A stretch of DNA of 64,000 nt, taken from an uncultured cyanobacterium. GTDB lineage: Bacteria > Cyanobacteriota > Cyanobacteriia > CACIAM-69d. Made by a program: the position numbers and the translations under genes. Below the pieces are notes generated by a model. The model was not told the origin of the DNA, did not search any database, and saw only the letters and a list, made by a program, of their open reading frames with translations. The stretch is from NCBI GenBank assembly GCA_937883785.1, contig CALGDE010000114.1:1-64000 (forward strand), read 5' to 3'. How positions within the stretch are numbered: the stretch's first letter is position 1; every line of letters starts with the position of its first letter. This document shows, one piece after another, positions 295 through 8,247 of the stretch.

Positions 295-763
295 CCGATA
301 TGACGACTACGTATATCGGCAAGCTTGGATGTTTTCGCGTGAGCTGCGTTTTAATTTGAACGCTATTGACCATGATGCCAACTATTTATTGAAGAGAAAA
401 TCCTCCAGTGTAATCCCCTTTTCAATTGGGTGGATGGGCTACGCAATATTTGTTTGACAGTGTCCATACAAAGCCATTCAACCGTCTCAACGCCGCTACC
501 GATACCTTCGGTTCTGAAACTTCAGGTTTTGAACATCAACCGTCAGTAGGTCAGTGTGCATGGGCGTTGTTAGACCAGGACCGTATATCTTGAGGCGTAG
601 ATGGATTGAGTGGTGGGATGTTAGTGGTGGGATGTTACGTGTCTATCCCAACGAAAGTAAATTGTCAGCGCTCTATAATCTGCCCCTTGAGTCTCACGTT
701 GCGTCACCCTTTAGCATTCAGTCATCAAGCGAAATTTTCGGGACATTGGAGTCGGGGCAACCT
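295..763. other. Gene-free stretch upstream of the MerR-type gene
   Basis: This stretch holds no gene I can support. The frame of the downstream regulator stays open back to 554, but that extension has no family resemblance. A promoter for the regulator probably lies here, but I cannot point to one convincingly. Confidence 0.4.
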
Positions 764-2035
764 ATGCCAAAACTTTTACAAGTGGGGGAGTTAGCAAAAC
801 AGACTGGATTATCTATTCGAACTTTGAGGTACTACGACGAGATTGGCTTGCTAGTACCCTCGCACCGCACTGAAGCAGAGTATCGACTGTATAGCGAAGC
901 AGACATCGCAAGGCTCCAACAAATTTTGTCGTTACGACAGTTGGATTTTTCACTTAAGGAAATTCGCGAATGTTTGGAGAATCCTGATTTCTCCCTACCG
1001 AATGTGATCGACCTGCATTTGGCGCGACTTCAAGAGCAGATGACGGTATCGCAGTCGCTTTTTACCAAGCTCAGCACCCTCGCCCAACAATTCCAAACCT
1101 CCCGAGTCGCTTCCGTGGACGATCTCTTGCAAATAATGGAGAACCTCACCATGACTCAACAATATTTGACCCAAGAACAAAACGATTTACTCGAAGCTCG
1201 ATTGAATAAGGGGAACAATGATGGGCAGACCCAATGGCTGTTAGATCAAGCGCGATCGCACATGGTCCAAGGTCGTGACTTCAACGATCCAGAGGTGCGG
1301 CACATGGCATCGCAGTTTCGTCATGCCCTGCTATCTCTAGTGGATGGTGACCTGCAACTCTATGAAGCACTGATGCAGGTGTATCAGAAAGAAGGCGCTG
1401 AAGCCGCCACCTTGGGTGCCTTAGATGCCCCCACATTCGACTACATCCTCAAGGCAATGGCGATACTGTCCGTGCGAGAAGACATGGTGGATTTTTCGTT
1501 GGATCCCTTCACTCCGGAAAGCCGCGAAGTGTTGATTCAAGGTCAGAAATGTATGGAGGATCTACACCTCGACTTCTTCGGTACAGAAGGGCTACTTTTA
1601 GGGCTGCTAGCTGTCGAAACATCTTCAGTGGCACAAGCCCTGAATAACCAGGGGGTAGATTTCGTTATTGCCCAAGATCTCATACAAAAGTTGTTAGCTA
1701 AACACAACGTTGCGGATCAAAAAATCCCCTCTTATCTGAAAAATCTCAAGCGAAAACTGTTAGCTAAGTACACCGTTCAATTACCCAGAACCCCCTCTGA
1801 CACAAAAATCCCCTCAAAAATTTCCTTTACACCCCGCGCCCACCGTGTCGTGGAGCTAGCCACTGAACAGGCAAAGCAGCAAGGTCAAGCTCGGATGACT
1901 CCCCAACACCTGCTACTTGGTCTTTTGCGGGAAAGTGAGATAGGAGGTGAGGCGGGTGGCGGTTTGGCCATGCACGTTCTAAAAGAGTGCGCCGTAGACT
2001 GCCAGAAGCTGAAGCAGCAGCTGGACAGCGCATGA
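764..2035 (+). CDS. MerR-family regulator fused to TipAS-like and double Clp_N domains
   Basis: Predicted transcription regulator of 423 residues. Residues 3-70 form a MerR winged-helix DNA-binding domain (VGELAKQTGLSIRTLRYYDE, then the EYRLYSE wing). A coiled coil follows at about 80-115. Residues about 130-235 resemble the TipAS ligand-binding domain. Two Clp_N-type repeats follow, at about 245-315 (FTPESREVL, GTEGLLLGLL) and 345-423 (FTPRAHRVVELA, TPQHLLLGLLRE). I chose the ATG at 764 because MPKLLQVGEL is where MerR domains normally begin and GGAG lies 12 bases upstream. The open frame reaches back to 554 without any recognisable sequence. Clp_N repeats normally bind adaptors or substrates in ClpA/ClpC, so the fusion suggests a regulator that senses a small molecule or a protease-linked partner. 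That role is inference. Confidence 0.85.
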   Translation: MPKLLQVGELAKQTGLSIRTLRYYDEIGLLVPSHRTEAEYRLYSEADIARLQQILSLRQLDFSLKEIRECLENPDFSLPNVIDLHLARLQEQMTVSQSLFTKLSTLAQQFQTSRVASVDDLLQIMENLTMTQQYLTQEQNDLLEARLNKGNNDGQTQWLLDQARSHMVQGRDFNDPEVRHMASQFRHALLSLVDGDLQLYEALMQVYQKEGAEAATLGALDAPTFDYILKAMAILSVREDMVDFSLDPFTPESREVLIQGQKCMEDLHLDFFGTEGLLLGLLAVETSSVAQALNNQGVDFVIAQDLIQKLLAKHNVADQKIPSYLKNLKRKLLAKYTVQLPRTPSDTKIPSKISFTPRAHRVVELATEQAKQQGQARMTPQHLLLGLLRESEIGGEAGGGLAMHVLKECAVDCQKLKQQLDSA

Positions 2036-6198: not shown

Positions 6199-6510
6199 AT
6201 GGCAGCCGTATCTTTAAGCGTTTCTACCGTTAAGCCCTTGGGCGATCGCGTTTTTGTAAAGGTCAGCGCTTCTGAAGAAAAGACCGCTGGCGGCATCCTG
6301 TTGCCCGACACCGCTAAAGAAAAGCCCCAAGTTGGCGAAGTTTCCGCAGTGGGCCCCGGTAAGCGTGGCGAAGGCGACAGCTATCAGGGATTGGAAGTGA
6401 AAGTGGGCGACCAGGTTCTGTACTCCAAGTACGCTGGCACCGACATCAAGCTAGGCAACGAGGACTACGTTCTGTTGTCTGAGAAAGATATTTTGGCGAT
6501 CGTTGGCTAG
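6199..6510 (+). CDS. groES: Co-chaperonin GroES
   Basis: A 103-residue GroES (Cpn10) subunit, normal length. It forms the seven-fold lid on the GroEL ring during protein folding in the cytoplasm. Characteristic segments are [11 protein letters not shown], the mobile loop [18 protein letters not shown], and the C-terminal [11 protein letters not shown] with [17 protein letters not shown]. The ATG at 6199 follows GGAGAAGG, a good ribosome site. It is the first gene of the groES-groEL operon, 102 bases before groEL, and is controlled by the CIRCE and K-box elements upstream. Confidence 0.98.
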
Positions 6511-6546
6511 GACCTTCTTCAGGGCATCGATACAAGTCCTGAATAG

Positions 6547-8247
<1,701 letters not shown>

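What the first reader, a model, noticed from the sequence alone, without database searches (positions are those of the whole stretch)
764..2035. MerR regulator fused to TipAS-like and two Clp_N domains
Seen: MerR DNA-binding domain, TipAS-like segment and two Clp_N repeats in one 423-residue chain. Knowledge: Clp_N repeats are docking modules of ClpA/ClpC chaperones and bind adaptors, phosphoarginine or acyldepsipeptide-type ligands; TipAS binds thiopeptide-like compounds. Inference: a drug or proteotoxic stress sensor that controls transcription and may touch the Clp protease directly.
Basis: partly seen in the sequence, partly recalled or inferred. Interest (0 to 1): 0.55.

Follow-up and report, generated by a model that had tools for sequence, protein, structure and literature searches.

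The report
Drug-sensing regulator wearing ClpC's N-domain
A cyanobacterial gene encodes a one-protein switch that looks like a known class of antibiotic-sensing, antibiotic-trapping regulators but also carries a copy of the docking domain of the ClpC protein-destruction machine, so it may sense and soak up compounds or proteins aimed at that machine.

Summary
Window 764-2035 encodes 423 residues: MerR DNA-binding domain, coiled coil, TipAS-type drug-binding domain, and two Clp_N repeats that together form one ClpC-type N-domain. It is a real family: 20 intact genes, 19 of them in 17 of 388 sampled genomes of the class. They form one clade beside relatives of about 250 residues without Clp_N, and the Clp_N part is under purifying selection.

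Two new findings bear on mechanism. (1) 21 of 22 upstream regions examined have a MerR-type promoter: -35, 19 bp, -10, with a dyad between. In 21 genomes every exact match to the pattern lies before a family member, so the protein probably controls only its own gene. (2) Met130, invariant, follows one of the strongest conserved internal Shine-Dalgarno-like sites and aligns with the first residue of AlbAS, the short form of the albicidin trap AlbA. This predicts a short TipAS+ClpC-N product.

Best reading: a self-contained, apparently horizontally moving TipA-class sensor-plus-sponge that gained the N-domain of ClpC, probably as a target mimic. The ClpC-directed ligand is inference. Control of clp genes found no support. 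Seven searches of an open-access library showed no description. New variant of a known kind.

The parts
687..692 (+). -35 element TTGAGT of a MerR-type promoter
   Evidence: TTG in 21 of 22 upstream regions of the family
693..711 (+). 19-bp spacer with the presumed operator dyad (here CTCACG-TTG-CGTCAC, imperfect; the more symmetrical form in 12 of 21 is CTSACG-N3-CGTCAG or one base off)
   Evidence: 19 bp in 21 of 22; exact pattern in 21 genomes only before family members
712..717 (+). -10 element TAGCAT
   Evidence: 16 of 21 sites read TAG[CG]AT, the other five differ by one base
748..751 (+). GGAG Shine-Dalgarno-like site of the full-length product
   Evidence: Read directly; anti-SD energy -5.9 kcal/mol
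764..2035 (+). Gene for the 423-residue MerR / TipAS-like / ClpC-N protein
   Evidence: ORF, Pfam, 20-member alignment
764..988 (+). MerR winged helix-turn-helix DNA-binding domain (residues 1-75)
   Evidence: MerR_1 3.2e-20; 20 of 20 members; the most conserved part
989..1108 (+). Coiled-coil/dimerisation helix (residues 76-115), inferred
   Evidence: MerR-DNA-bind 48-104; long helix 78-112 in a low-confidence model
1109..1477 (+). TipAS-type effector (drug-binding) domain (residues 116-238)
1138..1153 (+). Predicted internal ribosome-binding site (GGAG 1138-1141) and start codon ATG 1151 (Met130) for a 294-residue TipAS+ClpC-N isoform
   Evidence: Best mean anti-SD score of 364 alignment columns (tied with its two neighbours); Met130 invariant; aligns with Met1 of AlbAS
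1499..1699 (+). Clp_N repeat 1 of one ClpC-type N-domain (residues about 246-312)
1700..1810 (+). Linker; window and L009 share a stretch of about 28 residues absent from the other 18 members (L056 has an insert of its own)
   Evidence: Alignment A1
1811..2026 (+). Clp_N repeat 2 of the ClpC-type N-domain (residues 350-421)
   Evidence: Clp_N best stretch 368-422; alignment with ClpC repeat 2

Best explanation
It is an autoregulated TipA-class sensor-and-sponge with an added ClpC N-domain as bait. Without ligand, the gene's own promoter, whose 19-bp spacer is too long for good use, is poorly active. Ligand bound by the TipAS and/or ClpC-N part remodels the MerR dimer, which binds and distorts the promoter and switches on its own gene. 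The message yields the full-length regulator and, from the internal start at Met130, a short TipAS+ClpC-N protein that traps the ligand before it reaches the cell's real ClpC. Shown by computation: domains, single clade of the fusion, selective constraint, promoter and dyad, exact operator only at the family's own genes, internal start signature. Inferred: ligand-dependent activation, production of the short form, sequestration. Least certain: that the ligand is a ClpC-directed peptide-like compound.
For: MerR and Clp_N in 20 of 20 members and TipAS in 19 of 20. Mid-domain profile hits AlbA. One complete ClpC-type N-domain: 126 and 103 bits to this genome's two ClpCs against 26 and 24 bits to its two ClpBs. 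20 fused genes plus one decayed copy in one clade, support 95/93. ClpC-N dN/dS 0.13-0.30 in 8 pairs, some sharing a member. MerR-type promoter with 19-bp spacer in 21 of 22 upstream regions. In 21 genomes the 22 exact matches lie before family members; of 72 matches with up to two mismatches I assign 25 to family genes, and the other 47 equal the 49 of the reversed control (my count). Internal start: mean anti-SD -5.98 kcal/mol, the best of 364 columns and like five true starts (-5.9 to -6.3); GAG at the codon before it in 17 of 20 fused and 13 of 13 unfused, against 37% and 45% overall; Met130 aligns with Met1 of AlbAS. Precedents: AlbA (PMC10189885, PMC12531866, PMC6078987, passages), TipA/SkgA (PMC7762955, passages), mycobacterial ClpC2, a ClpC-N protein that is derepressed by cyclomarin A and sequesters it (PMC10030653, passages). 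Equivalents of F80 and E89, named there as critical for cyclomarin A, are F in 18 of 20 and E in 19 of 20. No widely shared neighbour, as expected of a one-gene system.
Against: No ligand, binding or expression data. The third cyclomarin residue, F2, is not kept (position set by offset), so cyclomarin itself is an unlikely ligand. TipAS is below Pfam's cut-off in the window protein alone. The dyad in the window and its near relatives is imperfect. The search pattern was made from these same upstream regions, so only its absence elsewhere is informative. Fused L060 has no such promoter. Four loci carry broken copies, so the gene is dispensable in some genomes. The structure model failed (mean pLDDT 49). 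Internal start: columns 402-404, near the C-terminus, score almost as well (-5.6 to -5.8), residue 91 also has GAG in 17 of 19, relatedness inflates such counts, and cyanobacteria do not always rely on Shine-Dalgarno sites (recalled). PMC6078987 says the short AlbA form was assumed by analogy with TipA.
Confidence: 0.45

Rival explanations
1. Proteostasis sensor: the ClpC-N part binds what ClpC itself binds (adaptors such as ClpS1/ClpS2 or NblA, or phosphoarginine-marked or unfolded proteins), and this occupancy sets the expression of the gene, which then acts as a decoy for adaptors or substrates.
For: The glutamate equivalent to ClpC E32 (phosphoarginine contact, recalled) is E in 20 of 20. 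The review PMC7966870 (passages) names ClpS1, ClpS2 and NblA as ClpC adaptors in cyanobacteria. ClpC2 also rose to a milder degree under heat shock (PMC10030653, passage).
Against: The TipAS domain points to small molecules. The second site (ClpC E106, recalled) is E in only 11 of 20 and Q in the window. The operator was not found at this genome's ClpC and ClpB loci.
Confidence: 0.22
2. The Clp_N part delivers the protein or its cargo to the Clp protease (degron, or co-assembly with ClpC or the ClpP ring), so that the trap and the bound drug are cleared or the regulator is short-lived.
For: The N-domain is a whole ClpC-type unit. ClpT proteins associate with the ClpP ring in algae and plants (PMC7966870, passages); a double Clp-N motif protein scores in the profile search (4y0b, 5e-13; that it is a ClpT is recalled).
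Against: N-domains of ClpC receive adaptors and are not known to dock on other ClpC rings (recalled). [quoted passage not shown] Turnover could not be tested.
Confidence: 0.13
3. Ordinary TipA-class drug regulator in which the Clp_N part is only a structural or dimer-stabilising extension without its own ligand.
For: Unfused relatives have the same promoter type and internal start signature, so the basic circuit works without Clp_N. Decayed copies exist.
Against: All 20 intact fused members have the Clp_N part and they form one clade; it is under purifying selection, dN/dS 0.13-0.30; residues E275 and R358 are kept in 20 of 20, F355 in 18 and E364 in 19.
Confidence: 0.17

Closest known systems
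AlbA (AlbAL/AlbAS), albicidin resistance regulator of Klebsiella oxytoca
   Same: MerR domain plus TipAS-type domain; 19-bp spacer with a palindrome reported nowhere else in its genome (PMC10189885, passages); a short form AlbAS from an in-frame start (PMC12531866, passages; assumed by analogy in PMC6078987), whose Met1 aligns with Met130 here.
   Different: AlbA has two tandem TipAS-like domains and no Clp_N; here one TipAS-like domain plus a ClpC N-domain.
TipAL/TipAS (Streptomyces lividans), SkgA (Caulobacter), Mta (Bacillus)
   Same: Minimal autoregulated drug-binding MerR regulators (PMC7762955, passages); same order of MerR and TipAS domains.
   Different: They end with the TipAS domain; the ligand is unknown here.
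ClpC2 of mycobacteria
   Same: A ClpC1-NTD-like domain in a self-regulating transcription factor that binds cyclomarin A and acts as a molecular sponge (PMC10030653, passages).
   Different: ClpC2 dimerises by its own helical domain, is proposed to bind DNA through its ClpC-like part and is a repressor relieved by the drug; here DNA binding is by a MerR domain and activation is expected. It is an analogue, not a family member.
MerR-TipAS proteins of about 250 residues in cyanobacteria (alignment A3)
   Same: 36-46% identity in the 13 aligned, over residues of about 2-236; same promoter layout and internal start signature.
   Different: No Clp_N part.

Membership tests
TipA-class MerR regulators | N-terminal MerR helix-turn-helix | tested here: met
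   MerR_1 3.2e-20; 20 of 20 members
TipA-class MerR regulators | C-terminal TipAS effector domain | tested here: met
   Below cut-off in the window protein alone; met at family level: 19 of 20 at E<=0.1, unfused kin 13 of 13, AlbA profile hit 2.1e-8
TipA-class MerR regulators | Own promoter with long (19-20 bp) spacer and dyad | tested here: met
   19 bp in 21 of 22 family upstream regions; the dyad is imperfect in the window
TipA-class MerR regulators | Short drug-binding isoform from an in-frame internal start | tested here: inconclusive
   Sequence signature at Met130; no expression data
TipA-class MerR regulators | Binds and is activated by an antibiotic | not testable with these tools
   Needs protein and ligands
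ClpC-type N-domain | Two Clp_N repeats forming one domain closer to ClpC than to ClpB | tested here: met
   One stretch over ClpC residues 4-138, 1.3e-35; own ClpCs 126 and 103 bits, ClpBs 26 and 24 bits
ClpC chaperone | Two AAA+ modules | tested here: not met
   No AAA domain in the Pfam scan; the chain ends after the N-domain
Mycobacterial ClpC2 | Residues critical for cyclomarin A (F2, F80, E89 of ClpC1) kept | tested here: inconclusive
   F80 equivalent F in 18 of 20, E89 equivalent E in 19 of 20, F2 equivalent not kept
Mycobacterial ClpC2 | Own N-terminal helical dimerisation domain, with no separate DNA-binding domain | tested here: not met
   The N-terminus here is a MerR domain

The most novel reading that the evidence does not exclude
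A one-gene, horizontally moving resistance cassette in which a TipA-class regulator has captured the docking domain of the antibiotic's own target, ClpC. One promoter and two start codons make a sensor and a target-mimic sponge. Its spread would imply that cyanobacteria meet natural compounds aimed at ClpC, and that target-mimic sensing of Clp poisons arose separately in cyanobacteria and in mycobacteria (ClpC2).
Probability: 0.33. Interest if true: 0.78.

Novelty: new variant of a known kind. Interest (0 to 1): 0.57.

Why it matters
ClpC N-domains are the site of action of antimycobacterial peptides such as cyclomarin A, and ClpC2 shows that a stray ClpC N-domain can be both sensor and sponge (PMC10030653, passages). 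A second, differently built example in cyanobacteria would point to natural ClpC-directed compounds in these communities and offer a ready-made reporter to find them: the promoter and regulator in a laboratory strain. It also adds an effector part, a protease docking domain, that I know of in no described MerR regulator; the listings of the searches showed none.

Tried and rejected
Two separate Clp_N domains: rejected; they align as one ClpC-type N-domain. Start at GTG 554: not favoured; the promoter at 687-717 lies inside that extension and relatives align from ATG 764. Regulon including clp genes: not supported; the short core pattern CTSACGYNRCGTSA gave 28 matches in 8 genomes, 13 of them at family promoters by my count, against 26 for its reversed control. 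Conserved operon partners: none seen. The largest shared neighbour family is in 6 of 23 loci (a Uma2-like protein, label recalled); groES/groEL near the window gene had no match in the other neighbourhoods, several of which end at contig ends. Structure prediction with 4 sequences failed (pLDDT 49), so no fold search was run. Plasmid copies of the fusion: 35 records matched, 0 covered 80% of the query; the 20 listed match only the MerR-TipAS part. Wider spread: the pattern scan of genome contigs, which finds close relatives only, returned 6 loci, two of them fused (L009, L010), the others matching residues 4-123 or 4-91. In the phylum sample the two hits from outside the class had no Clp_N match. 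Other phyla were not sampled with the profile. A described Clp_N fusion in PMC7159879 (one passage) is with a vWA domain, not with MerR.

Full report
What is there. The gene at 764-2035 (+) encodes 423 residues. Pfam finds MerR, MerR-DNA-bind and Clp_N (two stretches), all above curated cut-offs; TipAS is below its cut-off when this protein is scanned alone. NCBIfam gives 19 matches at E<=10, all below cut-off, mainly to named MerR families and one to ClpB.

It is a family. A protein search of 388 genomes of the class found 42 with a match at E<=1e-30; at most four first-look candidates were scored per genome, so copies may be missed. From the ORFs, 19 intact fused genes lie in 17 of the 388 genomes. 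By matched range and open frame, 21 more have only an unfused relative, and four (G416, G604, G215, G619) have only a broken or contig-cut copy. With L010 (Crocosphaera sp. MO_202.B2) there are 20 full-length members; L009 (Cyanothece sp. SIO2G6) is the same locus as in G387. The contig-cut copy (L062) was left out of the 20-member alignment. Four loci are broken: L052 (in-frame stop), L068 and L087 (frame change), L020/L089 (remnant); some may be assembly errors. In the phylum sample 8 of 386 genomes matched; the samples overlap.

Domains at family level. MerR_1, MerR, MerR-DNA-bind and Clp_N match 20 of 20 and TipAS 19 of 20 at E<=0.1; the 13 unfused relatives aligned all match TipAS. A profile of the mid-domain hits six AlbA sequences and nothing else below 0.001. 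A profile of the C-terminal part aligns in one stretch with ClpC residues 4-138 (5hbn, 1.3e-35). It scores 126 and 103 bits against this genome's two ClpC N-domains and 26 and 24 bits against its two ClpBs.

History. In a tree of residues 1-240 with 36 rows, the 20 fused proteins and the decayed copy L087 form one clade (95/93), apart from the 14 unfused rows used. Eleven of those 14 come from the class search, which had 23 unfused matches by my count. L019 has a long branch and its place is unsure; the outgroup branch is very long. dN/dS (Nei-Gojobori) in eight pairs is 0.13-0.30 for the ClpC-N part, 0.08-0.24 for the middle and 0-0.11 for MerR. The window gene looks acquired. None of five genomes of the same family has a match at E<=1e-30, including G428 of the same genus with GroEL 99% identical, though G428 is a draft, 93% complete. 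Synonymous divergence of the gene from L009, of another family, is 0.47, against 1.54 for GroEL of the same two genomes and 0.64 for GroEL of window and G428. No neighbour is shared by more than 6 of 23 loci.

Promoter. I looked at 22 upstream regions (20 intact genes, L052, L062). In 21 there is TTGNNN, 19 bp, then TAG[CG]AT or one base off; 19 match the pattern TTGNNNCTSACGYNNCGTCANNNNNTA exactly and two with one mismatch; L060 has none. In the window this is 687-717. The dyad is CTSACG-N3-CGTCAG in the more symmetrical members and CTCACG-N3-CGTCAC, imperfect, in the window and its near relatives. Twelve unfused relatives read have the same layout. Across 21 genomes the pattern has 22 exact matches, all directly before a fused, broken or unfused family member. 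Of 72 matches with up to two mismatches, I assign 25 to family genes; the other 47 equal the 49 of the reversed control (my count). The pattern was built from these regions, so the telling fact is its absence elsewhere. No match with four or fewer mismatches is found in the stretches around the four own ClpC/ClpB genes. The simplest reading is a dedicated autoregulator. AlbA is described in the same way: 19-bp spacer, palindrome found nowhere else in the genome (PMC10189885, passages).

Internal start. Met130 is invariant in the 20 fused proteins and its counterpart in the 13 unfused ones. Its upstream GGAG/GAGG gives a mean anti-Shine-Dalgarno energy of -5.98 kcal/mol over the fused genes, the best of 364 columns (tied with its neighbours), like five true starts (-5.9 to -6.3). 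The glutamate codon that makes it is GAG in 17 of 20 and 13 of 13, against 37% and 45% GAG overall. Against this, columns 402-404 score -5.6 to -5.8, residue 91 also has GAG in 17 of 19, and relatedness inflates such counts. In the alignment with AlbAS, Met130 falls on the Met of MYDRW, which W5 in the papers' numbering makes residue 1 of AlbAS. The two products of albA are stated in PMC12531866 and were assumed by analogy with TipA in PMC6078987, passages seen in both.

Ligand. Of the ClpC1 residues named as critical for cyclomarin A (F2, F80, E89; PMC10030653, passage), the F2 equivalent is not kept, F80 is F in 18 of 20 and E89 is E in 19 of 20. The equivalents of two glutamates recalled as phosphoarginine contacts (E32, E106) are E in 20 of 20 and 11 of 20. 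This keeps open a ClpC-N ligand face but names no ligand. ClpC2 of mycobacteria is the functional precedent: a ClpC-N-like self-regulator and sponge for cyclomarin A (PMC10030653, passages).

Verdict. The parts are known; the combination is not described in anything I saw. The searches were made, in an open-access library only, judged from their listings plus the passages cited. I file it as a TipA-class MerR regulator with a new effector part: new variant of a known kind.

Noticed in passing
window 718-735 and family upstream regions: A block like CATCAACCGCA just after the -10 element recurs in most fused-family promoters (window: CATCAAGCGAA); several have a dyad AGGAT/ATCCT there (AGAAT/ATTCT in L067) and some unfused relatives ACCAT/ATGGT, which may be a second site or leader element (read by eye).
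   Followed up: partly
window 1700-1810: The linker between the Clp_N repeats has a stretch of about 28 residues shared only with L009, seemingly a repeat of a LLAK...IPS unit.
   Followed up: no
window 6199-8247: groES and groEL lie downstream of the gene; they had no match in the neighbourhoods of relatives, so this looks like coincidence.
   Followed up: yes
L052, L068, L087, L020/L089: Broken or remnant copies of the fused gene, each with an exact match to the operator pattern upstream, suggest frequent gain and loss.
   Followed up: partly
L060 and L088 (genome G506): This genome has a fused copy without the operator and an unfused copy with an exact one; possible cross-talk between paralogues.
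   Followed up: no
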